Part shown: in pieces, positions 5,837-33,690 of the stretch | How positions within the stretch are numbered: the stretch's first letter is position 1 | How the letters are laid out: each line of letters starts with the position of its first letter | From: a virus | Strand: one strand, 5' to 3' | DNA length: 41,392 nucleotides | IMG/VR virus record: IMGVR_UViG_3300043667_000015 | Coordinates: 1 to 41,392 of that record | Made by a program: the position numbers and the translations under genes | The notes under the pieces: generated by a model | The model's database searches: none | What the model was told of the DNA's origin: nothing | Seen by the model: only the letters and a program-made list of their open reading frames with translations

Positions 5837-6132
5837 GTTTCCCGGGGAACCTCGCGGCGCTCTCTGCACTTCGACTCGTGGCCGACGCCGTTGTCGAAGC
5901 GGCACCAGCACAGGGAGTCGTCAGCGAGCTTCCGGACCGGGTCGGCGTCGGCCAATGGGAGTCGTCGGATGAAGTCTGCGGTGAGGGTGACGCCGACGAT
6001 GCGGATCGTCAGGAGCCGGCGCGGATCCTCGAGGACGACGCCGTCGCGGAGGTCGAGTCGGACGACGGTCCAGTCGCGCTCCTCGGCGGCGTCGAGGATG
6101 TCGCGCTGCCAGGCCCGGATCGCGTCAGCCAC
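5833..6132 (-). CDS. Hypothetical early protein, 99 aa
   Basis: The family is not recognised. The protein appears to be an alpha/beta fold (WTVVRLDLRDGVVLEDPRRL, then ILTIRIVGVTL-like strands) with a short C-terminal tail containing CWC and a Cys/Arg-rich end. It starts with GTG at 6132 with GGAG about 10 bases upstream, and overlaps its neighbours by 4-8 bp. Its position just before xis suggests co-expression with the integration module. Confidence 0.6.
   Translation of the reverse strand: MADAIRAWQRDILDAAEERDWTVVRLDLRDGVVLEDPRRLLTIRIVGVTLTADFIRRLPLADADPVRKLADDSLCWCRFDNGVGHESKCRERREVPRET
5837..5850. promoter_or_regulatory. parS/NBS-like dyad 1, abutting the xis start
   Basis: GTTTCCCGGGGAAC is one of five intact copies of the dispersed 14-bp motif GTTTCYCRGGRAAC. 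It lies directly against the ATG of the excisionase gene, where bound protein would block transcription into xis-int. Its centre (CCCGGG) is close to the known Noc site ATTTCCCGGGAAAT. Confidence 0.6.
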
Positions 6133-6658
6133 CGTGAGGCTCCGGGCGGGTCGCCGCTGTCAGTTGCTCGGCCCAGCCGTTGATCGCCTGCTCGGTCTCC
6201 GGCCAGAACCGGATATACCCTTCGGCGATCCTCACCTGCGCCGAGGCGGACGCCCTCGCCGCGATCGCCATGCCGGCGAGGACCAGGCCGACCGCGGTGC
6301 GGTCCTCGGGGTCGTAGCCGTTGGCGGCCGCGTACCGCCTTGCAATTGCGATGGCCGCCTGTTCGACCCGACCGTCAGTGCCCGGACCCGCTCGTCCTCG
6401 ACACCAGTTCAAGCCGATGGAGCGGCGGAAGTCTGAGCGCCGGACTGAAACCCATCGCTCGATGGACACGACCACCTGGCCGGGCTGGCCGCAGATACGG
6501 CAGACGAGCGGTAGGTAGTCGTGGGCTTCTCCGGGCTCGTGCGACGACCCGCCGGCGTCCAAGGGTGTTCCCCGCACTGCGGGGTTGCGCGGAGTGGAGA
6601 GCGGCGGTCCTACGTCCGGAGCCTCCCCAGCAAAATCGCCGTCGTATCTCAGACCCAT
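6125..6658 (-). CDS. Hypothetical early protein with CxxC motif, 177 aa
   Basis: The start at 6658 is set by GAGGAGG eight bases upstream; a longer frame to 6700 lacks this. A CRICGQPGQ segment near residue 55 and WCRGRAG near 85 could bind zinc. The C-terminal half is helical and Ala-rich (AIAIARRYAAANGYD...). It overlaps the neighbouring genes by 8-10 bp. No family is recognised. Confidence 0.65.
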   Translation of the reverse strand: MGLRYDGDFAGEAPDVGPPLSTPRNPAVRGTPLDAGGSSHEPGEAHDYLPLVCRICGQPGQVVVSIERWVSVRRSDFRRSIGLNWCRGRAGPGTDGRVEQAAIAIARRYAAANGYDPEDRTAVGLVLAGMAIAARASASAQVRIAEGYIRFWPETEQAINGWAEQLTAATRPEPHGG

Positions 6659-7035
6659 GACTGTTCCTCCTCGGGCTCGTCGACGAATGGTGGTGACCAC
6701 GTCTCGGGCAGTTCGGGCTCGGCCTCGACCGCGCCATCAGCGGGGGGCTTCGGTGCCACGGCGGGGCGCTCGGCCGGTGGTGGAGGCGGAGGCGGCGCGT
6801 CGTCGCGCGTCTCCCATGCCTCGCGGTCCCGCTGGGTGTCGATGACCGGCCAGGCCCGCCCACTACCGTCGGGCCCCGGGGTCTCGACCCGGATCCGGCA
6901 GGCGATGCGATCGCGACATCGGTCGACCGCTTCCCACTCGTCGCCGATGGGCTCGACCCAGCGGACGAGCGAGAGCCGGACATCGGCGTCGTGCCCCTCG
7001 ATCTCGCACAGGGCACAGGTCGCCTTCTCGCTCAT
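6649..7035 (-). CDS. Small zinc-finger-like protein with a Pro-rich linker, 128 aa
   Basis: The N-terminus MSEKATCALCEIEG carries a CxxC pair, with further Cys at CRDRIAC, suggesting a small zinc-binding domain. The middle is a run of Pro residues and Pro/Ala spacers, and the end is acidic (EPEEEQSWV), like a protein-protein tether. The ATG overlaps the previous gene's stop. The function is unknown; single-stranded-DNA or replication partners with acidic tails are one possible analogy. Confidence 0.65.
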   Translation of the reverse strand: MSEKATCALCEIEGHDADVRLSLVRWVEPIGDEWEAVDRCRDRIACRIRVETPGPDGSGRAWPVIDTQRDREAWETRDDAPPPPPPPAERPAVAPKPPADGAVEAEPELPETWSPPFVDEPEEEQSWV

Positions 7036-8099
7036 GACCTCGACCTCGAGCCTGCCAGGATGGCCTCGGCCTCTCGTCGGTCACGTGCCTTGGTCTGCGA
7101 CCAGATCGACTCCTCCTCGGCGATGCGACGCTTGTTGGCCTCCTGCGCGTCGCGGTCGGCGCCAATGACGGCCCGGAGCGGGTCCAGGTCGCCGGCGTTC
7201 GCGATCGCACTGACGGCGAACCAGGAGCCGTCGTCGCCCTTGCGCCGATGGCGATCGGCGATCTCGTCGAGCACCGTCCGCTGCTTGGCCGTGACGCGCC
7301 GGTAGCCGTGGTCGAGCAACGCCTGGACGTCGGCCCGCTCGGGCACCGCCGGCGAATCTCGATTCTTCGAACCTCTACCGTGAGGAGAGGATTCTCTCTC
7401 CGTCCTTGTCGCCGTCGCCGTCGTCGGGCGCGCGCGTGAGGAGACGCGTCTCGTGACAGCGTCACGTCGTACCGGTGACGCGTCACTGTGACGCGTCACA
7501 CCGTCACCAACGGGGACCGGCAGGGGCGTCATCCCCGCTTCCTCGGGCGTGCGGCCGCCCTTCTTCTTGTTGCACGATCGGCACGCGGTGACGAGGTTCT
7601 CGAGCGTCGTCGGGCCGTTCGGGATCACGTGCTCGGCGATCAGCCAGTCGCGTTCGTAGTCCGCTCGGCCGCAGTACCGGCAGGTGTGCTGGTCGCGGGT
7701 GAAGACCGCCTGCCGGAGGCGCCACAGGGCGGTCCGCTTGGCGCCGGAGCTGACGGCGTCCTCGGTTGTCGATGACGTCGCCGAGCGCTGCTCTCGCAGA
7801 AAGTCATGGACGACCACGACCCCATGGCGGAGCTCGCCGTACCGGATCGCGCACTCCTCGCACAGGTCGGGGTCGGTCTCGAGGAGGCCCGCGGCGAGGT
7901 AATCCTTCACGTAGCGCCCGTGCCGACCCAGCACCTCTGTGAAGTGGAACTCGGAGCCGAAGACCCCCATCTCGCGCTGGACCTTGGCCTCGAGCATCGC
8001 GTAGACCCAACCGAGGCGGGCGCCGTCATCGGGGAGGCCAGCGATCTTCGGGTTCCGCCGGAAGCCGATCAGGAGCTTGATCCACGGTTCGCGAGCCAC
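7032..8099 (-). CDS. Replication-initiator-like protein with an internal HNH domain
   Basis: This is a 355-residue protein. The first 100 residues (PWIKLLIGFRRNPKIAGLPD... then EVLGRHGRYVKDYLAAGLL) resemble the winged-helix N-terminus of phage replisome organisers. A complete HNH nuclease module follows: CRYCGRAD, LIAEHVIPNG, NLVTACRSCNKKK. After a low-complexity Thr/Arg/Ser linker, a C-terminal helical part begins near residue 255. Four to five iteron-like dyads (7441-7507) lie in the DNA encoding the linker, which is the lambda gene O arrangement of an origin inside its initiator gene. The start GTG at 8099 overlaps the previous stop (TAGTG) and has GGAG upstream. The initiator role is inference; the HNH domain is clear. 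Confidence 0.72.
   Translation of the reverse strand: MAREPWIKLLIGFRRNPKIAGLPDDGARLGWVYAMLEAKVQREMGVFGSEFHFTEVLGRHGRYVKDYLAAGLLETDPDLCEECAIRYGELRHGVVVVHDFLREQRSATSSTTEDAVSSGAKRTALWRLRQAVFTRDQHTCRYCGRADYERDWLIAEHVIPNGPTTLENLVTACRSCNKKKGGRTPEEAGMTPLPVPVGDGVTRHSDASPVRRDAVTRRVSSRARPTTATATRTERESSPHGRGSKNRDSPAVPERADVQALLDHGYRRVTAKQRTVLDEIADRHRRKGDDGSWFAVSAIANAGDLDPLRAVIGADRDAQEANKRRIAEEESIWSQTKARDRREAEAILAGSRSRS
7441..7507. repeat. Cluster of iteron-like palindromes (candidate phage replication origin)
   Basis: Two perfect 12-bp palindromes GTGACGCGTCAC lie at 7475-7486 and 7488-7499. A variant GTGAC-AGC-GTCAC is at 7453-7465, a related palindrome GAGACGCGTCTC at 7441-7452, and a half-site GTCAC at 7503-7507. 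All fall within 67 bp inside the initiator-like gene. The neighbouring 7345-7400 is poorer in GC than its surroundings and contains GAGAG-GATT-CTCTC. This is the layout of lambdoid origins. Confidence 0.6.
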
Positions 8100-8305
8100 T
8101 ACGCCGCTCCCGCGGCCCGGTGGCGGGCGCAGACACATCGGCGCCGGGGCTTCCGGCGGAGACGCTCGACGGCGTCGGCGATCCGGATCCGCGTGGTCGC
8201 CTCCCGGGGCCTCAGCCCGTGCGACTCCAGGAGCGCGATCTCACCGACGGCCGCTGCAGCTGGCCGGGTCGCCCAGAAGCGCTGCAGGCGCTCCTCCGCC
8301 GTCAT
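8099..8305 (-). CDS. Small basic hypothetical protein, 68 aa
   Basis: This protein (MTAEERLQRFWATRPAAAAV...) is helical and ends in an Arg/Cys-rich tail (RRKPRRRCVCARHRAAGAA). It is co-translated with its neighbours by overlaps at both ends. No family is recognised. The basic tail could contact nucleic acid. Confidence 0.55.
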   Translation of the reverse strand: MTAEERLQRFWATRPAAAAVGEIALLESHGLRPREATTRIRIADAVERLRRKPRRRCVCARHRAAGAA

Positions 8306-8862: not shown

Positions 8863-9125
8863 TAGGCGGGCTCGCTCTCAGCGGTAGGAAGAACCGGGCC
8901 GACGCTCTCGAGCCGGATGATTGGCTCCGCGTGGTCGGCCGGGACGTCGACCGGCTTTGCGATGAGGTCCAGCGGGTCGAACAGCCAGTCGGGCACGTCG
9001 GCGACGAAGGCGACGCGGATCGCCCCGCTACCACGTGGCGTGGCCCCTCGAGCCTGCGTCAGCTTCGTCGCCGAGACGGTCCCGTACTTCCGCTCGAATT
9101 GGACGAAGAACTTGACCTTCGCCAT
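8862..9125 (-). CDS. Hypothetical protein downstream of parB-like gene, 87 aa
   Basis: The protein starts MAKVKFFVQFERKYGTVSATK and then shows strand-rich segments (AIRVAFVADVPDWLFDPLDL). The ATG at 9125 overlaps the parB-like stop (ATGA). No family is recognised. Translational coupling suggests a partner of the ParB-like protein. Confidence 0.6.
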   Translation of the reverse strand: MAKVKFFVQFERKYGTVSATKLTQARGATPRGSGAIRVAFVADVPDWLFDPLDLIAKPVDVPADHAEPIIRLESVGPVLPTAESEPA

Positions 9126-11143
9126 CAGGAAGCCGCCGGCGCCGGCCGGGCGGGCGGGACCTCGCCGCCCTGATGAACGCATCCCGGGACGTGGTTGGAG
9201 CCGACGCAGACGAGCGGGAGCGGCTCAGTGAGCTCGTCGAGCTGGCCGGCGGTCTCCGTGGCCACCGCGGCGACCGATGGCGCCTCCACGACTAGGGCAG
9301 GCGCCCTCCAGACCCGCGCCTTCGTGTCGGCGACGAGGTCGGCGAGCATCACGTGGTGACGGGCCGCGATCGGGCGCCCAGGCGTGTAGTCGGGCGGAAC
9401 GAGATCGACGATCGCCGGGTCCTGCCCCGGATAGACGATCGCGATGACCACGTACTCGCGATGCCCGCCAATGACGACCGGGTCCTGGAGGCGGACGTCC
9501 TTCCCGAGGCGCTTCCGGTCCGGCTTCACGGCCGCGGGCTTCGGCGCCTCCTCACCGCGTCCATGGGCGAGGAGCCACGCGGCGATCGCCGCCCGCACGC
9601 CGGGCCCGCCGGCGAACCCGCCCACGAAGTCCACGATCGCCTTGGACTGGATCCCGGCGAGATCCTCGTCGGGGATCCCCTCGAGGAGGGTCCAGGGCGC
9701 GTCGTCGAGGTCGAGCAGGCCCGCGGTCTCGCCCTGGAGGTACTCGTCGGCGAGCTCCTGGTCGATCTCGCCCTCGAGGAGCGCGTACAGCGTCAGACGG
9801 CGCGCCAGCGGCGTCGGTGGCTGTTCGGCCAGGATGTCCACGATCCCCGCCCGGAGGCGCCCTGCGGCCGCCTGCTCGGCCTCACGGGCGACGCGGCGCT
9901 CCTCGTTGCCCTTGGCCACGTCGGCCTTCCACTGCGCGTCGAGCGCGGCCTTCCGGGCCGCCTTGTGGTCGCTCGAGTTGCACGCTGGGTGGAGGGTGAC
10001 GTGGCCGTTGTCGTTGTACGGGATCGCCAGCCGCCAGACGCCGGCGCAGCCGCACGAGCCGGCCTGGGCAATGACGTCGACGCCGCCCCCGTTGGTCACC
10101 TTCCAGCCGTCGGCGGTCAGGGCCTTCTTGACCTCGTCGCCGGTGTAGAAGTCCTCGACGCAGATCGTCGACGCGTCCCGCTGGGCGACCTTGTCGAGCA
10201 TCGCGATCGCTTCGGCGGCTCGCTTGGCGACACCGGCCTCGTGCTCGCGGATCCGCTTCCCGCTCTCCTTGACGTGCTGCGCCTGCTGCTCCGTCGCCTT
10301 CGCCGACAGACCGCGCTCGACGACCGTCTCGAGCAGGCCTGCCTGCAGGTCGACGTCGACAGCGGCGATCGCCCGGGCGTGGGTGGCGCTCAGGCTGCCG
10401 GCCCGGACGGCCTCTTGGACGACGGGCGCCGTCTCGAGCAGGCGAAGCGTGTTGGTGACCCAGGACCGATCCTTCTGGACGAGCTTGGCGATGTCCGCGT
10501 GGGTCATCGAGGGCCGCGCGGCCGCGATCGCCGACATCGCCTTGGCGATGTCGAGCGGATTCAGGTCGGCGCGCTGGACGTTCTCGACCAGCTGGACGAC
10601 AGAGCGGCCGATGCCGGTCTCGCCGAGCTCGAGGCGAGGATCGACGATCGCCCGGATCTTGGTCTCGCCGGCGAGCGTGGCCGCTGCGAGCCGCCGATGG
10701 CCGGCGAGAACGCGGTACCCGGTTGGCTTCTCGTCGAGCCCTGCGCCGTAGAGGGCGGTGACGGTGATCGGCTCGAGGAGCCCGTGATCGCGGATCGATC
10801 CGGCCATCTCGGCGATCTGACCGACATCTTCGCGGACGTTGGTCGCGACCTCGATCTGATCAATCGGGATCTCGCGCAGCTGTCCCATCGGCCCGGCGAG
10901 CCCAAAGGCGATCTCGGGCTCCTCTTCGGCCTCGCCACGCTCGACTGCGCGCTGGAGCTCGACCGGAATCCCGAGATCCTCAAGCTCGTCGTCGGTCGGG
11001 CCGGCCTCAACCTCGGCGTCTGGGTGAGCCATGGCGAGGTGCCCGTTCAGGCTACCGGCCGTCATGGCCGAGTAGGTGCAGTGCGGGCATCGGTGCTTGC
11101 CCGGCTTCCCCTTGAGGGTTTCCTGGGAAACGTCGACCGCCAT
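9125..11143 (-). CDS. Large ParB-like CTPase/DNA-binding protein with N-terminal zinc finger
   Basis: This is a 672-residue protein, about twice the usual ParB length. A C2H2 finger comes first (C19, C22, H35, H40). Then follows a canonical ParB N-domain: HGLLEPITV near 120, the GHRR motif at 148-151 and ENVQR at 187-191, which in ParB bind CTP and close the clamp. A ParB helix-turn-helix follows at about 213-236 (MTHADIAKLVQKDRSWVTNT) with the usual LSATHARAI helix. The C-terminal 350 residues hold a Cys-bearing segment (CGCAGVW) and unrecognised domains instead of the normal short dimerisation domain. No ParA is seen in the window. A parS-like dyad lies in codons 5-9 of its own gene, suggesting autoregulation. 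Confidence 0.85.
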   Translation of the reverse strand: MAVDVSQETLKGKPGKHRCPHCTYSAMTAGSLNGHLAMAHPDAEVEAGPTDDELEDLGIPVELQRAVERGEAEEEPEIAFGLAGPMGQLREIPIDQIEVATNVREDVGQIAEMAGSIRDHGLLEPITVTALYGAGLDEKPTGYRVLAGHRRLAAATLAGETKIRAIVDPRLELGETGIGRSVVQLVENVQRADLNPLDIAKAMSAIAAARPSMTHADIAKLVQKDRSWVTNTLRLLETAPVVQEAVRAGSLSATHARAIAAVDVDLQAGLLETVVERGLSAKATEQQAQHVKESGKRIREHEAGVAKRAAEAIAMLDKVAQRDASTICVEDFYTGDEVKKALTADGWKVTNGGGVDVIAQAGSCGCAGVWRLAIPYNDNGHVTLHPACNSSDHKAARKAALDAQWKADVAKGNEERRVAREAEQAAAGRLRAGIVDILAEQPPTPLARRLTLYALLEGEIDQELADEYLQGETAGLLDLDDAPWTLLEGIPDEDLAGIQSKAIVDFVGGFAGGPGVRAAIAAWLLAHGRGEEAPKPAAVKPDRKRLGKDVRLQDPVVIGGHREYVVIAIVYPGQDPAIVDLVPPDYTPGRPIAARHHVMLADLVADTKARVWRAPALVVEAPSVAAVATETAGQLDELTEPLPLVCVGSNHVPGCVHQGGEVPPARPAPAAS
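11118..11131. promoter_or_regulatory. parS/NBS-like dyad 2, inside the start of the parB-like gene
   Basis: GTTTCCTGGGAAAC is a perfect inverted repeat of GTTTC around CTGG. It occupies codons 5-9 of the ParB-like gene, an ideal place for autoregulation or spreading initiation. Confidence 0.6.
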
Positions 11144-11459: not shown

Positions 11460-12590
11460 TCAGAGCTCTCCTCCGTGATCGGCGACCATCGATCGCCATG
11501 CTTGGGTGAATGCGTCGGCGCCCATCGAGCGGGCCGCGACGGCGATGGATTGGGCCGCGGCCGCGCTGACGTTGTCGCGGGCTCCGGGGCCGAAGGCGAG
11601 GTCGAGTCCGGGCCCGATCACGCCCTTGAGCGGGGCGAAGATCTCGACAAGGGCCTCGTGCTGGATCTCCGTCTTCGGGCCCGTCATCGACGACGTCGCC
11701 ACGCCCTCGCGGAGCCGCTCGAGCAGGCTCGGCGCTTCGCCGGCGGTGGCGAGGATCGCGTCGTCGATGAGCTCCTCGACCGGTGTCGGCGCGCGGAAGT
11801 CGGACGTCGCCGGAGGTGGCGTGACCGGGATCGGTGGTCGGCCCGGGCCCAGGAGCGGCTGAGCGAGTCCGGCCTGGAGCAGTGCGGCCTGCTGGCCGCC
11901 CTCGAGCAGACCGGCGAAGCCGCCGGGGACGCGGATCGCAAGGACGTTGAATTCCTTCTTGCCCTGGCCGGGCCGCTTCTTCGATCGCGGATCGATCCAT
12001 AGCTCGGCCGGGACCGTGCGGCCCGTGCCCAGGGCGGTTGCGACGAGCAGCTCCGCCGTTCCGGCGAGCTCGATCGCGGCGTAGAAGGAGTGCGAGACGG
12101 CGAGCCAGATCCCGAGGTCGGGGAGGCGCGGCAGGATGACGGGCAGCCGGGTCGTCGGCTTGCAGGCCTGTCCCTTGCCGGCGAGCTCGACGCGTGTCGC
12201 GACGTCGTCGGGGCACAGGCAGGGCTTCCGCGTCAGCTGCTCCGTAACACCGTCGCAGCGCCGCTTGCAGCCGCCGCCGGCGTAGAGCTCCATCCACTGG
12301 CTGATCGGGTTGCCGGGCGGGATGACGATGTCCAGGGTGTCGGTGGCGGTCGTGAGCTGCCAGGCGTCGCCGTCGGGCGCGTCTGGCCAGGCCTCGACCG
12401 TCCCGCCGTAGATTTCCGCGGCCGCCTCGAGCAGGTCCCGGCGCGACTTCACCGCCGTCATCCGGAAGGTCGCCAGGCGGGCCGGGCGCTTGAACGTCTT
12501 GCCGTCCTTGGTGCCCTCGACCTGCTCGCCGGTCCGGATCCGCCCGAGCTCCCGGAATTGGCGCTGCATCACGATCGGTGAGATCGGCAT
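11460..12590 (-). CDS. phiC31 gp3-like protein (recombination-directionality-factor family)
   Basis: This is a 376-residue protein. Its N-terminal 200 residues match the pattern I recall for phiC31 gp3-like proteins of actinophages: ELGRIRTGEQV, LLEAAAEIYGGTVEAW, TLDIVIPPGNPISQWMELY, GGGCKRRCDGV with PCLCP, CKPTTRLPVILPRLPDLGIW and YYAAIELAGTAELL-type segments. In phiC31, gp3 switches a serine integrase to excision. This phage carries a tyrosine integrase, so here the protein more likely does its other, probably ancestral, DNA-metabolism job. The paired Cys (C109/C113 and C122/C124 region) look zinc-binding. The C-terminal 170 residues are an extension with no match. Family assignment is from memory of the motif pattern. 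Confidence 0.62.
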   Translation of the reverse strand: MPISPIVMQRQFRELGRIRTGEQVEGTKDGKTFKRPARLATFRMTAVKSRRDLLEAAAEIYGGTVEAWPDAPDGDAWQLTTATDTLDIVIPPGNPISQWMELYAGGGCKRRCDGVTEQLTRKPCLCPDDVATRVELAGKGQACKPTTRLPVILPRLPDLGIWLAVSHSFYAAIELAGTAELLVATALGTGRTVPAELWIDPRSKKRPGQGKKEFNVLAIRVPGGFAGLLEGGQQAALLQAGLAQPLLGPGRPPIPVTPPPATSDFRAPTPVEELIDDAILATAGEAPSLLERLREGVATSSMTGPKTEIQHEALVEIFAPLKGVIGPGLDLAFGPGARDNVSAAAAQSIAVAARSMGADAFTQAWRSMVADHGGEL

Positions 12591-12599: not shown

Positions 12600-13310
12600 C
12601 TACTTCATCGCGATCAGGCGGTCGAAGAGGGCGAAGCCCTCGGCGATCGCCTGATCGCGCAATGCCGACTCCGCCGACCACGCCGCCGACCACGCCGCCG
12701 ACCGCGCCGCCGACTCCGCCGACCGCGCCGCCGACCGCGCCGCCGACCGCGCCGCCGACTCCGCCGCCGACTCCGCCGACCGCGCCGCCGACCGCGCCGC
12801 CGACCGCGCCGCCGACTCCGCCGACCGCGCCGCCGACTCCGCCGACCGCGCCGCCGACTCCGCCGACCGCGCCGCCGACTCCGCCGACCGCGCCGCCGAC
12901 CGCGCCGTGGCCTCGTCGACAACCTCGCTGCAAGCAGCGAGGTTGTCCGCCTCGGCCGTCAGCCCGGCCGCTCGAAGGGCGATCGGGGCGAAGATCCTGA
13001 TCCCCGCGTCGGCGGCCATGAAGGCCCGCCGACGCTCCAGCTCGAGGTCATCGGTGGCGGTGCCGACGAGCTTCGCAACGTAGGGCACGAGGCGCTGGCG
13101 CTCAGCCTCCGGGAGGCCGTCGTTGAAGGCCCTCCCGTAGCTCGCGAGCACACCGCTCACGCATCCCGGTTGATCGGTGTGTGGCTCGCCCGCAAACCAT
13201 GCAACCGCCTCGAGCAGGCACACCCCGTCCGAGCGCCTCGAGTGAGAGCCGGAGAGCAGCTTCAAGGTCGAGAGGTCCGGCTTGGTCTCGACGGCCTTCG
13301 TTGCGCACAT
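12600..13310 (-). CDS. Phage protein with Ala-rich heptad-repeat (SAARSAE) domain
   Basis: This is a 236-residue protein. The first 130 residues (LKLLSGSHSRRSDGVCLLEA, AWFAGEPHTDQPGCVS, RLVPYVAKLVGTAT) resemble a conserved actinophage protein of unknown function. Residues about 135-215 are a tandem array of SAAR and SAE units, mostly alternating as a seven-residue SAARSAE repeat with late SAAW variants. Alanines at regular heptad spacing, with alternating Arg and Glu, predict a long Ala-packed helix or coiled coil. The C-terminus (ALFDRLIAMK) is again ordinary sequence. Copy number probably varies between strains by slippage of the 9- and 12-bp DNA units. Confidence 0.75.
   Translation of the reverse strand: MCATKAVETKPDLSTLKLLSGSHSRRSDGVCLLEAVAWFAGEPHTDQPGCVSGVLASYGRAFNDGLPEAERQRLVPYVAKLVGTATDDLELERRRAFMAADAGIRIFAPIALRAAGLTAEADNLAACSEVVDEATARSAARSAESAARSAESAARSAESAARSAESAARSAARSAARSAESAAESAARSAARSAARSAESAARSAAWSAAWSAESALRDQAIAEGFALFDRLIAMK
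12664..12906. repeat. In-frame tandem repeat array built from 12- and 9-bp units
   Basis: About 240 bp consist of the units GACCGCGCCGCC and GACTCCGCC (plus-strand view), often alternating to give a 21-bp period. Every unit is a multiple of three, so the array is open in several frames on both strands. It encodes the heptad domain of the minus-strand gene. Confidence 0.9.
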
Positions 13311-14297
13311 TCAGGCGACCTCCTTCGATTCGATGACGGGGGAGAGGTCCTCGAGCAAGACCGTGGCGGCGTGCTCGTGGAGGTAGCGATAGACCTCGAT
13401 CGCGTACAGGAAGGTGTTGAACGGGACGTCGTCGATCCGGACGAAGCGGAAGCGATAGCCCTTGGCCGCGATCTGGAGCACGGCGCCTGCCATGACGAAC
13501 GGCATCGGGTGCTCGGTGACCTTGTCGGCGCCGCCGATGAACTCGCCCCGGGCGTAGGCGCTCAGCTGGACGGACACCTCGGAGCGGATCGCGCCCGACT
13601 TGTAGTCCGTCAGGATCGAGGGCTTCGCCGCCGGGTCGAGAGCAGCCAGCCAGGAGGGCACGCGGCTGCCGCGGGCGACGATCCTCGCGACCAGCCGCTC
13701 GGCCCGGATCCGCATGACGGCGTCGAGGGTGCCGGCGTAGCCCTGGGTCCGGTTGAACACCGTGGCCTCGGTCGCGAGAAACTCGGGCTCGAAGTCGGCC
13801 AGGAAGGCACGGAAGGCCGCCTCGTGCCCCGACAGATGCGCGGGCCAAGGAACGAGCGGGCCGCCCGCCTGGAGGGCCCCTGACGCGCTCAGGGCCTCGC
13901 GGAGCACAAGCCGCTCCGCCTCGTCGTGGACCTCCGTCCCGACCGCGGCGGCGGCGTCGCGGTGGCGGTCGGCAGCTCCCTTGAGCCAGCGCAGCGCGAG
14001 CTGGCGTTCGGTCTGCTTGTGGAGCTTGATCGACCGGAGCTCACCGCGGGCCTGGCGCTCGGCGACGTCGGCGTAGCCCGCGCGGGCCAGACGGTGGACG
14101 ATCGCGATCGCCCGACTGTAGGGACCGCGGGCGAGGATCTCGGCGAGGGCGAGCTCGGACGCCATCTTGGCGTAGTGGGCGTGGAGGTACTTGGGGATCG
14201 CGCTGGCCAGCTCGGTGACGCTCCAGAACGACTCGCCCTTCCACGGATAGAAGCGCCGGCCGTCGTCGGTGTTCCGGGCGAGCGCCGGGTTGCCCAT
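13311..14297 (-). CDS. Cas4/RecB-like PD-(D/E)XK exonuclease
   Basis: This is a 328-residue nuclease for phage recombination or end processing. RecB-family motifs are visible: H124 in GTEVHDEAE, GTLDAV with D192, TDYKSG with D231 and K233, and the QLSAY motif (Q244-x3-Y248). Basic helices in the first 110 residues probably contact DNA. No RecT/Beta-type annealing protein is recognised next to it. The ATG at 14297 overlaps the previous stop (ATGA), and the gene ends directly against the next start. Confidence 0.82.
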   Translation of the reverse strand: MGNPALARNTDDGRRFYPWKGESFWSVTELASAIPKYLHAHYAKMASELALAEILARGPYSRAIAIVHRLARAGYADVAERQARGELRSIKLHKQTERQLALRWLKGAADRHRDAAAAVGTEVHDEAERLVLREALSASGALQAGGPLVPWPAHLSGHEAAFRAFLADFEPEFLATEATVFNRTQGYAGTLDAVMRIRAERLVARIVARGSRVPSWLAALDPAAKPSILTDYKSGAIRSEVSVQLSAYARGEFIGGADKVTEHPMPFVMAGAVLQIAAKGYRFRFVRIDDVPFNTFLYAIEVYRYLHEHAATVLLEDLSPVIESKEVA

Positions 14298-15518: not shown

Positions 15519-15772
15519 GACCCGGTCTCGATCGCATCACGGAGGGCGAGGTAGGCAGCGGCCGGCGTCTCGGCCGTCTCGGTGATGAAGCCGCCCGAGC
15601 GGTGATCCGCGATCGCCGTCCAGCCCTCGTCGCCGGCGTTGAGCGCCGTCAGCGTCCAGCCGTCGCCGAGGTTCTCCGTGAACTCGGGGCGCCTGTGCTC
15701 GAGGACCGCCGTGGCCGCGAGGAACAGGGAAACGAGGGTCGCGAGGACCAGGTAGGCCTCGAACGGAGTCAT
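15515..15772 (-). CDS. Small single-pass membrane protein, 85 aa
   Basis: One N-terminal transmembrane helix (MTPFEAYLVLATLVSLFLAA) is followed by a soluble domain (FTENLGDGWTLTALNAGDEG, then SGGFITETAETPAAAYLALR). The end resembles a small phage domain that stacks a sheet against one helix. It is coupled to its neighbours by ATGA overlaps. A role at the membrane in early infection is possible. Confidence 0.6.
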   Translation of the reverse strand: MTPFEAYLVLATLVSLFLAATAVLEHRRPEFTENLGDGWTLTALNAGDEGWTAIADHRSGGFITETAETPAAAYLALRDAIETGS

Positions 15773-16002
15773 CAGCGGTACCGAAGTGACTGTCGGAACC
15801 GGGCGCAGATGAAGGCGTCGGTGGGGATGACCGCGTACGGGTCGAGGCCGAACTTTCGCGCCTCCGCGACGAGGGAGCATGCGAGCAGTCCGCTCCTGGC
15901 GAACGTCTCCTGGCTGGTCGCGGCTTGAGCGAGGCTGGCGCCGGAGAAGGCCGCGGCCGCGAGGACGACGATGATGGTCAGTCGGCGAATCCGGGCACTC
16001 AT
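15772..16002 (-). CDS. Small secreted or membrane-anchored protein, 76 aa
   Basis: A typical signal peptide (MSARIRRLTIIVVLAAAAFSGASLAQA) suggests export with cleavage after AQA. The short mature part has two Cys (LLACSL and FICARF) that could form a disulfide. It is the second gene of the early operon. It could alter the envelope or block superinfection, but there is no family evidence. Confidence 0.6.
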   Translation of the reverse strand: MSARIRRLTIIVVLAAAAFSGASLAQAATSQETFARSGLLACSLVAEARKFGLDPYAVIPTDAFICARFRQSLRYR

Positions 16003-16211
16003 AGCGCCACCGCCGGTCGATCCTTCCGGTGGATGTCGAACTCGACGAGCCAATCGCGCACGACGCCGCGGCTCACCTCGAGGGCGTCAGCGATCTCCTC
16101 CTGCGTGTGCCGGCGCCCGATGTAAAGCTCTCGGAGCAATTCGGGCACGTCGCGGCCGGTGCGGGCGAACACCGCTTCTCGGGCGTAATCCTTGACCTTG
16201 CGTTCCACCAC
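15999..16211 (-). CDS. Helix-turn-helix protein, first gene of the early operon
   Basis: This 70-residue protein has the HTH GRRHTQEEIADALEVSRGVVRDWL at about residues 32-56, similar to resolvase/Sigma70-r4-like or AsnC-type HTH folds. It starts at GTG 16211 or the adjacent GTG 16208. It is divergent from the XRE repressor, in the position of a Cro or early regulator. The candidate promoter would place the transcript start at about the start codon, so translation may be leaderless. Confidence 0.72.
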   Translation of the reverse strand: MVERKVKDYAREAVFARTGRDVPELLRELYIGRRHTQEEIADALEVSRGVVRDWLVEFDIHRKDRPAVAL

Positions 16212-16214
16212 CGT

Positions 16215-16243
16215 AATCTGCCATTTCTGGCGGGATACGTCAA
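16215..16243 (-). promoter_or_regulatory. Candidate leftward early promoter
   Basis: On the minus strand TTGACG (16243-16238) is followed after 17 bp by CAGATT (16220-16215), a good sigma-70-type spacing. It is upstream of the HTH gene and the whole early operon. On the plus strand the same 40-bp region must also hold the repressor promoter; TAGGTT (16244-16249) is a weak -10 candidate. Confidence 0.55.
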
Positions 16244-16253
16244 TAGGTTACCA

Positions 16254-16703
16254 ATGGCCCAACCGTGGCCTGACCAATCGAATACGCGCTGGTCGACCGA
16301 TCCGCTCTTCCCTAGCCTCGTGGACGTGCCGCGAATCGACCAAGCCGAACGCGCCTACGCGATCAATCTCGGGGCATTGATCGCCCGCGAGCGCCTGGAG
16401 CAGGACGTTTCTCAGGAAGAGCTCGCCGAGGCCGCCGGTGTCAGCATCACGACGATGGGTCGCTGGGAGCGGGGGATCAACGCGCCCCGTTCCTACCAGC
16501 TGGCCCGCATCGCCAACCGACTCACGACACCTGCCGCCCGCTTCTTCGATCCGCCGGACTCTATGAGCGATTTGGATCGTCAGATCGTCGAGGCCGTCGA
16601 GGAAGGGCGTCGGTTGGCGTATCGACCGCGGCGGCGGGCAACGAAGCGAGGCGGCGGCGGGCCTTCCGAACGGCCCTCTCGACCTCCGAAGTCAGGTCCC
16701 TGA
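16254..16703 (+). CDS. XRE-family phage repressor
   Basis: This 149-residue protein has a clear XRE helix-turn-helix, QDVSQEELAEAAGVSITTMGRWERG (about residues 50-73), followed by a basic, low-complexity tail (RRLAYRPRRRATKR). I prefer the ATG at 16254, with AGG nine bases upstream; a GTG at 16326 would begin just before the HTH. It is transcribed opposite the early operon from a shared 42-bp gap, the classic lysogeny-switch layout. There is no LexA-type cleavage domain, so induction would not be by simple self-cleavage. It is the best candidate for the prophage maintenance repressor. Confidence 0.82.
   Translation: MAQPWPDQSNTRWSTDPLFPSLVDVPRIDQAERAYAINLGALIARERLEQDVSQEELAEAAGVSITTMGRWERGINAPRSYQLARIANRLTTPAARFFDPPDSMSDLDRQIVEAVEEGRRLAYRPRRRATKRGGGGPSERPSRPPKSGP
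16407..16420. promoter_or_regulatory. Degenerate parS-like dyad 3, inside the repressor gene
   Basis: GTTTCTCAGGAAGA matches the dispersed 14-bp motif except at the last two positions. It encodes part of VSQEEL in the repressor HTH, so it may be coincidental. Confidence 0.3.
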
Positions 16704-17362: not shown

Positions 17363-17376
17363 GTTTCTCAGGGAAC
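17363..17376. promoter_or_regulatory. parS-like dyad 4, at the end of the late operon
   Basis: GTTTCTCAGGGAAC, flanked as T...A, gives a 16-mer close to parS. It lies in the 26 bp between the shared terminator and the last late gene. Confidence 0.6.
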
Positions 17377-19684: not shown

Positions 19685-21417
19685 CAGGGCCGGCCGATCG
19701 TCGGCGCCTGGTTGGCGAGGTCGTAATACTCGACCCGCTCGAGCGCGCCGTGGACCTGCCGTCCGCCCAGGAAGACCTGGATGATCGGGGCAACCGTGCC
19801 GACGTCGTCACCGCGCTGACGAGCCGCGGCACCGCCATCGGGGAGGACGTACCCGCGCCCGCTGGGGAGCATGTAGCTCTCGGAGCTGCCGTTCTCAGCG
19901 AAGGAGAAGAGGCCACCCGGGAGGGTTGGCCCGCCTCGATGTCGCGCCACGCTCGCCGAGCCACCTCCCGCCGTCGTCCCGGTGTATTTGCCCTTCACCT
20001 TGCCCGGGGAGCTCGTCACCTTCAGCAGGGCGAGCACGGCCGCGGTGACGTCACTGATCCCGTCAACGACGTCGGCGACGAAGCCGGCGACATTGCCGAG
20101 GACGGTCATGAACCCGCCGAGGAGCTCGCCGGCGGCCTTGAGCGCGATCGCGAGCGGGCCCTTCCCGTTGCCCCACAGGGTCCCGACCAGGTCGCCCAGG
20201 GCCGGGACCAGGCCGCGCTGCTTCTCGCCCCCGAAGAGGGCCTTGACGACGCTCCCGAACGCGGGGATCAGCTTCTCGAGGATCGGGCCGACGACGCCCA
20301 TGATCGAGTCGATCACGCCGCCCTTCTTGGTCAGGGTCGTGATGAACGCCTGGACCTTCGGGACGACGTAGGTGAAGATCTGGCGCCCGAGGGTCATCGC
20401 CGTCGCGATCAGGCCGGGCCCGCCCTTGCCGCCGGCGAGGGCGCCGACCACCTTCCCGACGACCGAGATCAGGGTCGAGAGGACCCCGCTCGCGAAGTCG
20501 CCGATCTGGCGGATGAGGGGCTGGTTCTTGGCGACCCAGTCCTGGACGCCCGGGATGAGCTTGTCGGTGATGAAGCCCGCGACGACCTCGACCCCGGTCG
20601 CGAGGAGCGGCAGGACCGTGGTGGCCACCGGGATGATCGCGTTCCCGATCTTGGCCATCGCGTTGTCGACGACGGCCGCCAGGATCCGCTGCTGGTTGGC
20701 CATGCCGCCCGAGGTCCGGGCGAAGTCGCCCTGGGCGAGGGTGGTGTCCTTGAGGATCAGCGAGTAGGCGGCCTGGGCCTTGGCCGCGGCCGGCAGCGTC
20801 TCCTTGGTGTTCTTCACCAGGCCGAGCCGGAGGGCCTCCTGGCGGAGGCGGGCATCGGTGAGGTTGATGCCGAATTTGCGGAGCGGCTCGGTCTCGCCGA
20901 CGAGCCCGGCGCGAAGGGCCTCGAGGACATCCTCGGGGCTGGCGTTGTTGAACGAGGCCAGGTCCGACGCGAGACCGACGATGCTCTTCGACATCTTGGT
21001 CCCGACCGGGGCCGCGATCTTCATCGCCGAGAAGAGGTTGCCGAAGGTCCCGGCCGCCTCCAGCGCCTGCTGCTGGCTGATGCCCAGGGCCCGGGCCGAG
21101 GTCTTCGACCAGTCGACGATCGACGTCGCGTTCTTGCCGAACACGACGTTGACCTTGGACATCGATTCGCCGAGGTCGGACGCCTTCTGGGTCGCCTTGA
21201 ACAGGCCGGCGCCGACGGCGGCCAGGCCGATGCCGCCGAGGATGACTGCGTTCTTGGCCAGGTTGGCCACGGCGCCGGCGGCCGACTTCAGCCCGCCGGC
21301 GAGCTTGCCGGCGGCGCCATGGAGCTTGCCGAGGGACCCGTGGAGGCGGTTGACTTCGCCGCTCGCGAGGTTTTTGGCGGCGAAAATCAGCTGAAGGCGG
21401 CTGTCAACCGTTCCCAT
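19684..21417 (-). CDS. Tail tape measure protein
   Basis: This is a 577-residue protein. Typical tape-measure features are a helical Ala/Lys/Gly-rich start, a TP901-type core (KVNVVFGKNATSIVDWSKTS, ALGISQQQALEAAGTFGNLF, ETEPLRKFGINLTDARLRQE, ADGDFARTSGG-like ending in QGDFARTSGGMANQQ), then hydrophobic helices (VAGFITDKLIPGVQDWV). It is short for the family and would predict a tail of roughly 85 nm at 1.5 angstrom per residue. It begins with TGATG overlap to the HNH gene and has no ribosome-binding site of its own. Its first eight residues MGTVDSRL are shared with the HNH gene. Confidence 0.93.
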   Translation of the reverse strand: MGTVDSRLQLIFAAKNLASGEVNRLHGSLGKLHGAAGKLAGGLKSAAGAVANLAKNAVILGGIGLAAVGAGLFKATQKASDLGESMSKVNVVFGKNATSIVDWSKTSARALGISQQQALEAAGTFGNLFSAMKIAAPVGTKMSKSIVGLASDLASFNNASPEDVLEALRAGLVGETEPLRKFGINLTDARLRQEALRLGLVKNTKETLPAAAKAQAAYSLILKDTTLAQGDFARTSGGMANQQRILAAVVDNAMAKIGNAIIPVATTVLPLLATGVEVVAGFITDKLIPGVQDWVAKNQPLIRQIGDFASGVLSTLISVVGKVVGALAGGKGGPGLIATAMTLGRQIFTYVVPKVQAFITTLTKKGGVIDSIMGVVGPILEKLIPAFGSVVKALFGGEKQRGLVPALGDLVGTLWGNGKGPLAIALKAAGELLGGFMTVLGNVAGFVADVVDGISDVTAAVLALLKVTSSPGKVKGKYTGTTAGGGSASVARHRGGPTLPGGLFSFAENGSSESYMLPSGRGYVLPDGGAAARQRGDDVGTVAPIIQVFLGGRQVHGALERVEYYDLANQAPTIGRP

Positions 21418-21986
21418 CAGCCGACCGCTCGCAGCAGCGTGGCCCCGGAGAGGTACGTGGCCGCCGCCGCCAACCGATCCGGATCATCCGCGAGGAGGCC
21501 CAAGGCTCGATTGCAGTCGCCACACAGAAGGCCTCTGACCCGGCCGGTCGCGTGATCGTGGTCGACCGACAACGCGCGGACCTTTCCGGTCCGGCGGTCG
21601 ACGCTCGTCTCCTCTCGGCGGCAGATCGCGCACGTGCCGCCCTGGGCGGCGAGCATCCGGGCGTAGGCCTCGGGCGCCAGGCCGTAGCGCCTCGCGCGCC
21701 GCTCAGGCCAGAGGGCCTGAGCACGGTCGCGTGAGCTGCCACGACGCGGTTCCGGATCCGCCGCATAGCGGGCCCGAGCCTGGGCGTTGACCAGCGGCCG
21801 ATTCGCCTCCCGCCAAGCGTCCGCGGCGACGCGATGGCGAGCTCGATGTCGGGTCCGGTAGCCCCGGAATCGCTCCGGGTTTGAGATCCGGGCGGCCTTC
21901 AGCCGGGCCGAGATCGCTTCGCGGTTGGCCGCGTAATAGGCACGAGCCCTGGCGGCTCGAGCCAGCCGGCTGTCGACCGTTCCCAT
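21417..21986 (-). CDS. Endonuclease VII-type HNH endonuclease inserted before tape measure
   Basis: This is a 189-residue protein. The C-terminal half has the Endo VII/HNH pattern: YGLAPEAYARMLAAQGG, C119-x2-C122, the VDHDH core (142-145), then C155-x2-C158-N159 and a helical end. The N-terminal half is basic and Ala/Arg-rich, probably DNA-binding. Its first 24 bp duplicate the first 24 bp of the tape-measure gene (22 of 24 identical). It uses GGAGG seven bases upstream, which would be the original tape-measure ribosome-binding site. It is likely a free-standing homing endonuclease that has hijacked the tape-measure start. Confidence 0.88.
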   Translation of the reverse strand: MGTVDSRLARAARARAYYAANREAISARLKAARISNPERFRGYRTRHRARHRVAADAWREANRPLVNAQARARYAADPEPRRGSSRDRAQALWPERRARRYGLAPEAYARMLAAQGGTCAICRREETSVDRRTGKVRALSVDHDHATGRVRGLLCGDCNRALGLLADDPDRLAAAATYLSGATLLRAVG

Positions 21987-27676: not shown

Positions 27677-27690
27677 GTTTCTCAGGAAAC
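27677..27690. promoter_or_regulatory. parS-like dyad 5, after the capsid gene
   Basis: GTTTCTCAGGAAAC with flanks T and A gives TGTTTCTCAGGAAACA, matching parS TGTTTCACGTGAAACA at 13 of 16 positions with identical 6-bp arms. It abuts the terminator hairpin downstream of the capsid gene. Confidence 0.65.
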
Positions 27691-29311: not shown

Positions 29312-29340
29312 GCGAGGTCTCCTGTAGGCGGACATGAAGA

Positions 29341-29361: not shown

Positions 29362-29385
29362 CAGGACTGGGAGGAGCGGCCGAGC

Positions 29386-31982: not shown

Positions 31983-32251
31983 GCGGTGGGCTCCTCATCC
32001 TCTGCGAACCCGAGCCCGCCGCCGTCGGCGTCGAGGGCCTCGATTTGACGCCTGCAGCGCCAGCACCAGGCCTCGTCGTCGTCGGGATCCCGGAACGACT
32101 CTTCGCAGGTGCAGAAGGCGGGGTTGGTCAGGCCACGAATGCGGTCGCTCGCGGCGCGGGCCAGGGCTGCAAGGCCCCGTGCACGGCCATGGCCGTCGCG
32201 ATCGCCCCGTCGATCTTCCGAGCTGAATCCTTGAGCTTCGTAATCCGCCAT
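31979..32251 (-). CDS. Small zinc protein overlapping terminase, 90 aa
   Basis: The gene starts 124 bp inside the terminase gene in another frame and extends to the portal start. The non-overlapping half contains FCTCEESFRDPDDDEAWCWR with a further Cys, a compact C-x-C...C-x2-C zinc motif. The overlapping half is Arg/Gly-rich and could be non-native. The real start may lie further in, but no alternative ATG or GTG is seen. Confidence 0.55.
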   Translation of the reverse strand: MADYEAQGFSSEDRRGDRDGHGRARGLAALARAASDRIRGLTNPAFCTCEESFRDPDDDEAWCWRCRRQIEALDADGGGLGFAEDEEPTA

Positions 32252-33690
32252 CCGCTCTCACCTCGGTTCCGGCCGACAACGTTGGACAAGTGCCGGGCGA
32301 GAACCGGATCGCCGTCGTGCTCGAGGCGCTTGGTGACGACCAGGCCGTAGAGGTCGGTCGCGGCCGGGACCATCTGGCTGTCGTTCTGGGCCATGGAGAC
32401 CATGACGAGGCCCTCGGATTCGAGGATCGACGCCATCGCCTTGAACCCCCACGGGTCGTAGGCGAAGACAGGCCCGCCGGCGCCGCGGCGCTGAACCTTC
32501 CGGGCGAGCGCCGGGAACATGTTTCGCAGGGAACGTAGGTAGTTGAGGATCTCGTTCACGTCGGCCTCTTCGCCCGTCCGCGGATCCGGGGCGAAGAACC
32601 GGGCCCGAACGACGACGTGGTCCTCGGAGCTCGGGATCTCGGGGTTGCGCCGCCCGATCGGCATCGGGATCCGCTGGGCGACCGTCACGCACGTCGTGTC
32701 GTCGCTGACGCCGAAGTCGATCCCGACCGCGATCGGGCGCTTCCGATCGAGCCCGTGGAGGAGATCGTTCGGATCGTGGTCCTTGCTCGAGCAGTCGGCC
32801 CAGGTCCCGAGGGGAAGCCAGTCCTCGACCCCGGAGGGCCACTGGTTGAGGTGGAGGCGGCGGAAGTCGGTCAGCCGCATCGTCGGCTTCCGGAGCTCGC
32901 GCCGGAGATATTGCTCGGTGATCCAGGAGGCCGGGTTGGACAGGGCCCACACGGCCGGATCCATGGGGTCGGCGTCGGCGGCCGCCCCGTACCAGTACAT
33001 CAGGAAGCCGGCGTCGCGATCGCGGACGATCGTCAGGCCCGGGCGGTGCTCGACGACATCGACTCGAGCCAGGGCGGCGCTGTAGATCTGGCCGAGGATC
33101 TGCTCCTCGGCGATCCCGGCGGTGGTGATCGTGATGGTGATCGGCTGCTCGCGCGCGCCGCCGGCCGAGGTGAGGGCCGTGTAGAGCTCGGGCGACTTGT
33201 GGGCCCACAGCTCGTCGATGATGTTGCCCGACGGGTTGAGACCGTGCTGCAGGGCGCCGTCCGACGAGAGGACCCGGAGGATCCCGCCGTTCTGGGGGCA
33301 ATCGATGTAGTCGCGCCGCGGGAGGACGAAGTCCTGGAGGCCCGGGCTCGCGGCCACGAACCGCTTCTGCTGGCGGAAGACGATCGTCGCCTGCTTGAGC
33401 GACGCCGCCGCGATGTAGACCTCGGGCTCGTTCTCGCCGTCGGCGGTCAGGAGGTACACGCCGCCGGCCGATGCGATCGTCGACTTGCCGTTCTTCCTCG
33501 GGATCCCGAGGATGACCTCCTGGTACACCCGGAGCCCGGTCAGCGAGTCGAGCTCGAGCGCCTCGTCCCAGAACTCCTGCTGCCAATCCTCGAAGATGAG
33601 GGGCTGGCCGGCCCACCGGCCCTTGGTCTGGCGGATGTAGCGCTGACTGAAGGCAGCGAGTCGAGGACCGTCAGTCAGGATCGGCGTCAT
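32128..33690 (-). CDS. Terminase large subunit
   Basis: This is a 520-residue packaging motor and nuclease. The ATPase has a Walker A-like GIPRKNGKS (62-70) and a Walker B NIIDELWA with D159-E160. The RNase H-like nuclease has IAVGIDFGVSDDT (first Asp near 310) and later Asp/Glu in FAYDPWGFKAM. The start overlaps the small terminase by 20 bp. Confidence 0.94.
   Translation of the reverse strand: MTPILTDGPRLAAFSQRYIRQTKGRWAGQPLIFEDWQQEFWDEALELDSLTGLRVYQEVILGIPRKNGKSTIASAGGVYLLTADGENEPEVYIAAASLKQATIVFRQQKRFVAASPGLQDFVLPRRDYIDCPQNGGILRVLSSDGALQHGLNPSGNIIDELWAHKSPELYTALTSAGGAREQPITITITTAGIAEEQILGQIYSAALARVDVVEHRPGLTIVRDRDAGFLMYWYGAAADADPMDPAVWALSNPASWITEQYLRRELRKPTMRLTDFRRLHLNQWPSGVEDWLPLGTWADCSSKDHDPNDLLHGLDRKRPIAVGIDFGVSDDTTCVTVAQRIPMPIGRRNPEIPSSEDHVVVRARFFAPDPRTGEEADVNEILNYLRSLRNMFPALARKVQRRGAGGPVFAYDPWGFKAMASILESEGLVMVSMAQNDSQMVPAATDLYGLVVTKRLEHDGDPVLARHLSNVVGRNRGESGWRITKLKDSARKIDGAIATAMAVHGALQPWPAPRATAFVA
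32521..32534. promoter_or_regulatory. parS-like dyad 6, inside the terminase gene
   Basis: GTTTCGCAGGGAAC differs from the consensus GTTTCYCRGGRAAC at one position (G for Y). It lies in the large-terminase coding region, preceded by AT as in four of the six sites. Confidence 0.5.

What the first reader, a model, noticed from the sequence alone, without database searches (positions are those of the whole stretch)
5837..32534. Dispersed parS/Noc-like 14-bp sites in a prophage that encodes a ParB-like protein
Seen: GTTTCYCRGGRAAC-type dyads at 5837-5850, 11118-11131, 17363-17376, 27677-27690 and 32521-32534, with a degenerate copy at 16407-16420. I found none in the flanks. The best copy, TGTTTCTCAGGAAACA, matches parS TGTTTCACGTGAAACA at 13 of 16 positions, and site 1 is close to the Noc site ATTTCCCGGGAAAT. 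The prophage carries a ParB-like protein with intact GHRR and ENVQR (CTP) motifs and a canonical HTH, but no ParA. The sites fall at regulatory nodes: xis start, parB-like start, repressor, end of late operon, after capsid. Inference: a Noc-like or stoperator-like network in which a CTP-switch clamp loads at several phage sites to silence, organise or protect the genome. The sites could instead be operators of the XRE repressor.
Basis: partly seen in the sequence, partly recalled or inferred. Interest (0 to 1): 0.88.

Follow-up and report, generated by a model that had tools for sequence, protein, structure and literature searches.

The report
Spaced ParB-type sites across a prophage
A bacterial virus that encodes a solitary DNA-clamp protein of the ParB/Noc family carries five copies of what look like that protein's own landing sites, spread along most of its genome, and some other viruses with such proteins show comparable site arrays, which suggests a virus-wide DNA-coating system whose job can now be tested.

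Summary
Confirmed: five parS/Noc-like 14-bp dyads lie at the stated places. They are the only GTTTC-N4-GAAAC matches with at most one mismatch in the window (5 against 0.28 expected), and an unsupervised dyad search ranks them first once GC-rich codon-phase seeds are filtered out. The exact pattern occurs at 3 places in 177 genomes of the likely host class. Two degenerate copies in the repressor gene are uncertain.

Best reading: the prophage's ParA-less ParB/Noc-family protein (9125-11143) binds them. Its residue 173 is R, and all five sites have G at position 1. Residue 201 is T where most class ParBs have G, and the host parS 'A' at position 6 is gone. Other phages agree: one with Noc-like residues (Q173/K184/R201) carries eight dispersed Noc-type sites; one has six sites every 5.3-7.4 kb; 14 of 77 ParB contigs share GTNCAGACGTCTGNAC with a copy inside parB. 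But the plain scan finds no array in most ParB contigs.

I infer CTP-clamp loading and spreading over the phage genome during early lytic growth. Function (organisation, protection or silencing) is untested. The XRE-operator alternative is weaker but open: three of five sites are intergenic.

The parts
3705..3755 (.). attL-side core, 51-bp perfect repeat in a split tRNA-Gln(CTG)
   Evidence: identical to 40564-40614 and does not extend further; ARAGORN
40564..40614 (.). attR-side core at the tRNA-Gln(CTG) gene (40565-40639)
4420..5610 (-). tyrosine integrase
   Evidence: PF00589 E 6e-21; phrog_1
5486..5836 (-). excisionase-like small HTH protein; an in-frame ATG directly follows site 1
   Evidence: ORF 5486-5911, weak HTH_17 match below the Pfam cut-off; in-frame ATG
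5837..5850 (+). site 1, GTTTCCCGGGGAAC
11118..11131 (-). site 2, GTTTCCCAGGAAAC, in codons 5-9 of the parB-like gene
17363..17376 (+). site 3, GTTTCTCAGGGAAC, between the end of the late operon and a hairpin
   Evidence: the hairpin is a reading, its scan hit is within chance
27677..27690 (+). site 4, GTTTCTCAGGAAAC, just after the major capsid gene, beside a hairpin
32521..32534 (+). site 5, GTTTCGCAGGGAAC, inside the terminase gene
   Evidence: absent in the two 74-75% identical TerL genes
16407..16420 (+). degenerate site in the XRE repressor gene (uncertain)
   Evidence: 16.4 bits; encodes a VSQEE stretch with rare codons
16695..16708 (-). second degenerate site, 3' end of the XRE ORF (uncertain)
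   Evidence: 14.6 bits
9125..11143 (-). ParB/Noc-like protein, 672 aa: zinc-finger-like stretch 19-40, ParB_N 89-190, HTH_ParB 193-292, low-confidence C-terminal part
   Evidence: PF02195 and PF17762; PDB relatives Spo0J/ParB/Noc/KorB; model closest to Noc 7nfu
10367..10477 (-). specificity-residue stretch of the HTH (QKDRSWVTNTLRLLE ... SATHARAI; 173R 179T 184E 201T in Caulobacter ParB numbering)
   Evidence: numbering from PMC7383237 through the Noc alignment
11460..12590 (-). Gp3-like recombination directionality factor-like protein, two genes upstream of parB
   Evidence: PF18897 E 3e-40
13311..14297 (-). phage exonuclease of the early leftward genes
   Evidence: phrog_298 E 1e-21
16029..16703 (+). 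XRE-type repressor candidate (HTH at aa 114-170 of the ORF as listed; true start probably later)
   Evidence: PF01381/PF13560
27737..29335 (-). major capsid protein
   Evidence: PF05065, phrog_10
32128..33690 (-). terminase large subunit
   Evidence: PF20441/PF03354

Best explanation
The five dyads are the cognate parS-type loading sites of the prophage's own ParA-less ParB/Noc-family protein. Step 1 (supported by comparison, not by a binding test): the HTH of the 672-aa protein recognises GTTTCNCRGGRAAC, with R173 reading the G at position 1; changes at residues 170, 172 and 201 go with loss of the A at position 6 of the host's parS. Step 2 (inferred from the family): with CTP the protein closes as a clamp at each site and slides outwards; the sites lie 4.8-10.3 kb apart, and every prophage base is within 8.1 kb of one, 2.3 kb on average. 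Step 3 (inferred): the gene sits among the early leftward genes with a directionality factor-like and an exonuclease gene, so the coating acts on excised and replicating phage DNA, to organise or shield it or to tune transcription, rather than to partition it, since no ParA was found.
For: Site significance and phage specificity. ParB fold, HTH and motif anatomy. No ParA by PF13614; no ParA-binding motif. Residue code: Jalal 2020 (PMC7383237, passages) assigns residue 173 to position 1 and 201 to position 6. In 37 ParB loci of the searched genomes (34 of the class, 3 actinobacterial) 173 is R in 33 and 201 is G in 35; family genomes carry GTTTCACGTGAAAC within 1 mismatch in 32 of 41. The phage protein keeps R173 and has T201; all five sites keep G1 and none has A6. 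Phage G244: residues Q173/A179/K184/R201 and eight dispersed ATTTCCNNGGAAAT sites, all A1 and C6. G249: six GTTTCTAYRGAAA(C/T) sites at gaps of 5.3-7.4 kb (CV 0.10, p 0.0002). GTNCAGACGTCTGNAC with at most 1 mismatch in 10 of 17 contigs of one HTH class, 4 of 60 other ParB contigs, 0 of 37 controls, with a copy inside parB in all 14. A site lies inside the parB gene here too. Coding sites 11118 and 32521 are spelled with rare codons (products 5e-4 and 3e-4; no null for random codon runs was computed).
Against: No binding, CTPase or expression data. Only one phage was found with this motif array and this ParB; no close ParB relative came from viral contigs. In PMC7383237 T at 201 is tolerated in parS-specific as well as NBS-specific variants, so T201 alone does not predict loss of A6; residues 170 and 172 also changed. 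The two nearest TerL relatives (L005, L006; fragments, no ParB found in them) lack the terminase site and show no array; L006 lacks the post-capsid site. Most ParB contigs show no array by the plain scan: p<1e-5 in 8 of 82, of which one is the window, one (L106) has no ParB in view, and one (G256) looks like a codon-phase repeat. GTTTC dyads are not generally enriched in ParB loci (37 against 27.3 in 80). L106 has a GTTTCYNNRGAAAC array without visible ParB. L122 has R173/G201 but no parS within 2 mismatches in 11.6 kb. Evenness in the window alone is marginal (CV p 0.053, smallest gap p 0.023). Three of five sites are intergenic (P 0.02), which operators would also give.
Confidence: 0.7

Rival explanations
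1. The dyads are operators (stoperators) of the XRE repressor, silencing the prophage from dispersed sites.
For: XRE dimers also read short dyads (recalled). Two degenerate copies, 16407 and 16695, lie in the XRE gene. Three of five sites are intergenic (P 0.02).
Against: No strong copy lies between the start of the leftward gene at 15880 and the repressor's HTH, where its own operators would be expected; the best match outside the seven places named is 11.0 bits at 15670. Two of five sites are inside genes. 16407 encodes a VSQEE stretch, typical of XRE helices (recalled). Arrays in some other phages go with ParB residues or ParB class.
Confidence: 0.12
2. The sites are decoys or loading sites for the host's chromosomal ParB, letting the prophage borrow host ParA/SMC.
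For: 27677 matches the 16-bp parS at 13 positions (reading); host family parS is canonical. The tolerance reported for residue 201 shows specificity can be loose.
Against: All five sites lack A6 and T9 of the host parS; the phage brings its own ParB with changed residues 170, 172 and 201. One genome, G024, does have GTTTCACGGGAAAC sites, so host variants exist.
Confidence: 0.07
3. The protein binds the sites but acts in packaging or DNA modification, guiding an apparatus to phage DNA, as was suggested for phage ParB-terminase loci.
For: A suggestion of that kind is quoted in PMC6536676 (passages); one site lies in the terminase gene and one after the capsid gene. The ORF 38908-39360 reads with a DPPY motif as in DNA methyltransferases, but has no Pfam match.
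Against: Here parB is about 21 kb from the terminase gene, and no methyltransferase family is the main match of any window protein given to Pfam and PHROGs (not every ORF was scanned; the ParB itself has a weak ParB-domain match to a PHROG named DNA methyltransferase).
Confidence: 0.07
4. Chance plus codon bias: a few similar dyads that mean nothing.
For: Codon-phase repeats give strong false families in 70% GC DNA; searches show no excess.
Against: The motif is AT-richer than its surroundings and uses rare codons; 5 against 0.28; 3 places in 177 genomes; held-out sites are found by the other four.
Confidence: 0.04

Closest known systems
Noc and its NBS sites (Bacillus)
   Same: ParB-fold clamp with no ParA partner; dispersed 14-16 bp dyads; closest fold match (7nfu); G244 has Noc's specificity residues at 173, 184 and 201 and Noc-type sites.
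   Different: Phage-encoded, one site inside its own gene, G at position 1, 672 aa with a zinc-finger-like stretch and a long C-terminal part; no evidence of membrane binding or division control.
ParB/parS of chromosomes (ParABS)
   Same: HTH_ParB and ParB_N domains, GHRR/ENVQR motifs, similar palindrome; nearest relatives found in the genomes searched are ParBs of the likely host class (48%).
   Different: No ParA by PF13614, no ParA-binding motif, sites spread over 27 kb, changed residues 170/172/201.
KorB, VirB, BisD-type CTP-dependent regulators
   Same: ParB-fold regulators outside segregation (named in PMC12704722, passages; KorB matched).
   Different: Sites here are partly intragenic and spread over the whole element; regulation not shown.
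N15 phage-plasmid dispersed centromeres (recalled)
   Same: Several centromere-type sites dispersed over a phage genome.
   Different: N15 has SopA and lives as a linear plasmid; this is an integrated prophage without a ParA found.
Orphan ParB proteins of prophages
   Same: 872 of 80,326 ParB homologs are prophage-encoded, and orphans are common on mobile elements (PMC12704722, passages).
   Different: The passages seen describe no cognate sites for them.

Membership tests
ParB/Noc CTPase-fold protein | ParB_N and HTH_ParB domains | tested here: met
   both over Pfam cut-offs
ParB/Noc CTPase-fold protein | conserved nucleotide motifs (GxRR, ENxQR) | tested here: met
   GHRR (H in place of E) and ENVQR; G148, R150, R151, E187, N188, R191 invariant and Q190 nearly so among 16 phage ParBs
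ParB/Noc CTPase-fold protein | CTP binding, clamp closure, spreading | not testable with these tools
   needs purified protein
ParB/Noc CTPase-fold protein | parS/NBS-type palindromes on the same element | tested here: met
   that this protein binds them is not shown
ParABS partition system | ParA ATPase | tested here: not met
   PF13614 absent in the record, found in all 14 control genomes and in Yong-DA; no other ParA family was searched
ParABS partition system | ParA-binding motif in ParB | tested here: not met
   motif of PMC12704722 absent
Noc (nucleoid occlusion) | Noc specificity residues Q173, K179/184, R201 | tested here: not met
   window R/T/E/T; of the ParB loci listed only L153 (G244) has Q173, K184 and R201
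Noc (nucleoid occlusion) | membrane-binding amphipathic N-terminus | not tested
   N-terminus carries a CPHC...H...H stretch
XRE stoperator network | operator copies at the repressor's own control region | tested here: not met
   no strong match between 15880 and the repressor HTH

The most novel reading that the evidence does not exclude
Many ParA-less phages encode a ParB/Noc clamp together with roughly evenly spaced loading sites for it along the genome, inside genes as well as between them and often one inside parB, so that CTP clamps coat the whole viral genome: a genome-wide, sequence-addressed DNA coat that is neither partition system nor repressor network.
Probability: 0.43. Interest if true: 0.88.

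Novelty: new variant of a known kind. Interest (0 to 1): 0.72.

Why it matters
What solitary ParB proteins of phages do is open; the survey PMC12704722 catalogues them (passages seen). This supplies concrete DNA targets, a published residue-to-base code that agrees with the sites of one independent phage (G244), and a spacing pattern that points to coating. It makes the question testable with purified proteins and in a named phage with integrase, attP and repressor genes, VarioGold, which carries a GTGCAGACGTCTGCAC-type family.

Tried and rejected
Tried without gain: viral-contig scans with whole ParB, ParB core and the directionality factor found no relative; ParB search in 17 TerL-related records and in 11 of 26 motif-bearing records found none. 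A generic dyad scan is swamped by GATC/TCGA codon-phase repeats in GC-rich DNA, hence the composition filter and mirror-repeat control. Consensus promoter/terminator scans gave no more than shuffles. PADLOC, given 8 window proteins, matched only 7032-8138, by its HNH part.

Rejected: an RNA hairpin. Nearly all recognised genes run on the minus strand, and there three of the five copies would carry a C-A mismatch in the stem (reading). Rejected: calling 16407 certain; it scores 16.4 bits against 20.8-25.5 for the five, yet its rare codons keep it open. Rejected as evidence: the overall GTTTC-dyad count in ParB loci (37 against 27.3), and the 6-of-6 coding placement in G249, which chance gives with probability 0.65.

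Limits of the controls: the 37 control loci are shorter (0.57 Mb) than the ParB set (2.05 Mb), only 17 of them were searched for ParB, and the mirror control passes p<1e-5 in 1 of 82 and 1 of 37. The 82 include three near-duplicates (L111, L133, L172). The HTH class was written after seeing sites in some of its members, and the copy inside parB may partly reflect shared descent of the coding sequence. The parB-internal statistic (5 of 6 phages, P 0.005) and the combined evenness p (2e-6, five phages) were computed post hoc on chosen phages; VarioGold and G255 alone are not clearly even (p 0.054, 0.24), nor is G253 (p 0.14). The VarioGold copy inside parB (29453) is a weak one that falls outside one mismatch of CAGACGTCTG. 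Five named phages were fetched before looking at their dyads: VarioGold gave 5e-5, Popper 2.5e-4, Yong-DA 5e-4, Microcystis phage yong2 1.4e-2, ctl617 none under the filter; only VarioGold and Yong-DA have a site type seen elsewhere. Rows dropped: L111, L133, L172; 50 of 80 ParB loci were given.

Changed on checking: best explanation 0.72 to 0.70, XRE rival 0.10 to 0.12, novel case 0.45 to 0.43, because T201 is tolerated in parS-specific variants and three of five sites are intergenic.
Full report
WHAT THE WINDOW IS. The record is a 41,392-base IMG/VR virus record; no host genome comes with it. A perfect 51-bp repeat at 3705-3755 and 40564-40614 lies in tRNA-Gln(CTG), so the prophage is about 36.9 kb and has both ends, with an integrase next to one end. 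The right flank begins a gene that reads like a flavin-dependent oxidoreductase (my reading). Terminase relatives lie in two viral fragments (75 and 74%) and, in genomes, best in three Chloroflexi MAGs (61, 50 and 48% over the best segment). The host is therefore probably of that class; this is inference.

THE OBSERVATION. The five sites are at the stated places. With GTTTC-N4-GAAAC and at most one mismatch the window holds exactly these five, against 0.28 expected; 19 TerL-related loci hold 1 against 2.4. A position matrix from any four sites ranks the fifth 2nd to 5th of 41,379 positions. A search that is not told the motif, restricted to seeds less GC-rich than the genome, gives the same five as the window's first family (p 1.2e-6, uncorrected). 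The exact pattern occurs at 3 places in 177 genomes of the probable host class (0.8-4.1 Mb each), against 4 in the window.

THE PROTEIN. 9125-11143 (-) has ParB_N and HTH_ParB domains above the Pfam cut-offs. Sequence relatives in the PDB are Spo0J, ParB, Noc and KorB. The AlphaFold model is good only for about residues 90-310 (pLDDT mostly 70-95, mean of the whole 58) and matches Noc 7nfu first, then nucleotide-bound ParB. PF13614 (ParA type) is absent from the record while it rings in all 14 control genomes.

WHO BINDS. Jalal et al. 2020 (PMC7383237; passages read) report that residue 173 governs position 1 (R with G, Q with A) and residue 201 position 6 (G with A, R with C), K at 179 or 184 being permissive; T at 201 is tolerated in both specificity classes. 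The residues are placed through the Noc alignment. In 37 ParB loci (34 of the class, 3 actinobacterial) 173 is R in 33 and 201 is G in 35; 32 of 41 genomes of the family have GTTTCACGTGAAAC within one mismatch. The phage protein has R173, T179, E184, T201. Its sites have G1 and C14 in all five; position 6 is C, C, T, T, G and never A, and the other half-site has C at the equivalent place in all five. The direction of change fits; it does not prove binding, since residues 170 and 172 changed too.

OTHER PHAGES. A profile scan kept the best 80 of 441 viral loci with ParB relatives. G244 (L153) has Q173, A179, K184, R201 and eight ATTTCCNNGGAAAT sites, gaps 3.1-6.9 kb, spaced more evenly than random (p 0.001). 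G249 (L173) has six GTTTCTAYRGAAA(C/T) sites with gaps 5.3, 6.4, 6.6, 6.6, 7.4 kb (p 0.0002), all within open reading frames of a simple gene caller that counts 93% as coding. G255 and VarioGold carry CAGACGTCTG-type families; with GTNCAGACGTCTGNAC, up to one mismatch, 10 of 17 contigs of one HTH class, 4 of 60 others and 0 of 37 controls have a site, and all 14 have one inside parB. PF13614 is absent in G244, G249, G255 and VarioGold, present in G253, L174's record (just over the cut-off) and Yong-DA, which also have arrays. Against generality: only 8 of 82 sequences pass p<1e-5 in the filtered scan (mirror control 1 of 82; controls 0 of 37, their mirror 1 of 37), and those 8 include the window, L106 (no ParB in its 18.4 kb) and G256 (probably a codon repeat).

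MECHANISM. Shown: the sites, their phage specificity, the ParB fold, no PF13614 match, agreement with the residue code, and arrays in some other ParB phages. Inferred: binding, CTP clamp loading and spreading. Spacing suits loading sites: every prophage base is within 8.1 kb of a site (mean 2.3 kb). Placement is mixed: three of five sites here are intergenic (P 0.02), which a regulatory role, or simple avoidance of coding sequence, would also give. The gene runs with the early leftward genes (directionality-factor-like, exonuclease), which suggests action on excised or replicating DNA. My estimate: binding by this protein about 0.78; spreading given binding about 0.85; protection or organisation somewhat more likely than silencing.

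WHAT IS IN PRINT. Prophage and orphan ParBs are catalogued in PMC12704722; the passages I saw mention no cognate site arrays. PMC6536676 (passages) quotes an older suggestion that phage ParBs direct a modification apparatus to sites in the phage genome. Searches for phage ParB with dispersed parS, Noc and CTP and for the motif strings listed no paper whose title or shown abstract start describes such arrays; the held library lacks most subscription papers and bioRxiv, and most listed papers were not opened. N15's dispersed centromeres are recalled, not read.

Noticed in passing
L106 1-8750 (same contig as L082): An unrelated phage fragment (DnaB-type helicase, primase, RusA) has eight GTTTCYNNRGAAAC dyads with at most one mismatch (0.1 in mononucleotide shuffles) but no ParB match in its 18.4 kb.
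   Followed up: partly
L142, L143, L144, L155, L166, L170, L181, L186 and others; L267 (VarioGold), L270 (Yong-DA): A shared palindrome GTNCAGACGTCTGNAC in ParB-encoding phages; all 14 contigs that have it hold a copy inside parB, Yong-DA too; VarioGold's parB copy is degenerate.
   Followed up: partly
G253 (L179), 37 kb: Fourteen CTACTNNNNNNAGTAG-type dyads, seven of them intergenic, in a contig with both ParA- and ParB-type genes.
   Followed up: partly
L117's contig (G218) 8799: A single perfect TATTTCACGTGAAATA in a phage whose ParB reads Q173 and G201, the base preferences the code would suggest.
   Followed up: no
window 3762-4178, 7032-8138, 21417-21986, 34352-34972: Four separate small genes with HNH or endonuclease VII domains; 39357-39926 reads similar but has no Pfam match.
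   Followed up: partly
window 38908-39360: Short ORF with a DPPY motif as in DNA methyltransferases, no Pfam match; perhaps a fragment.
   Followed up: partly
window 12600-13310: A protein with a long SAARSAE-type repeat tract among the early genes.
   Followed up: no
window 5816-5864: Site 1 lies between arms GCGCCGCGA and TCGCGGCGC of an inverted repeat just before the excisionase-like start codon (reading).
   Followed up: no
window 11024-11089: CPHC...H...H zinc-finger-like stretch near the N-terminus of the ParB-like protein, encoded just after site 2.
   Followed up: no
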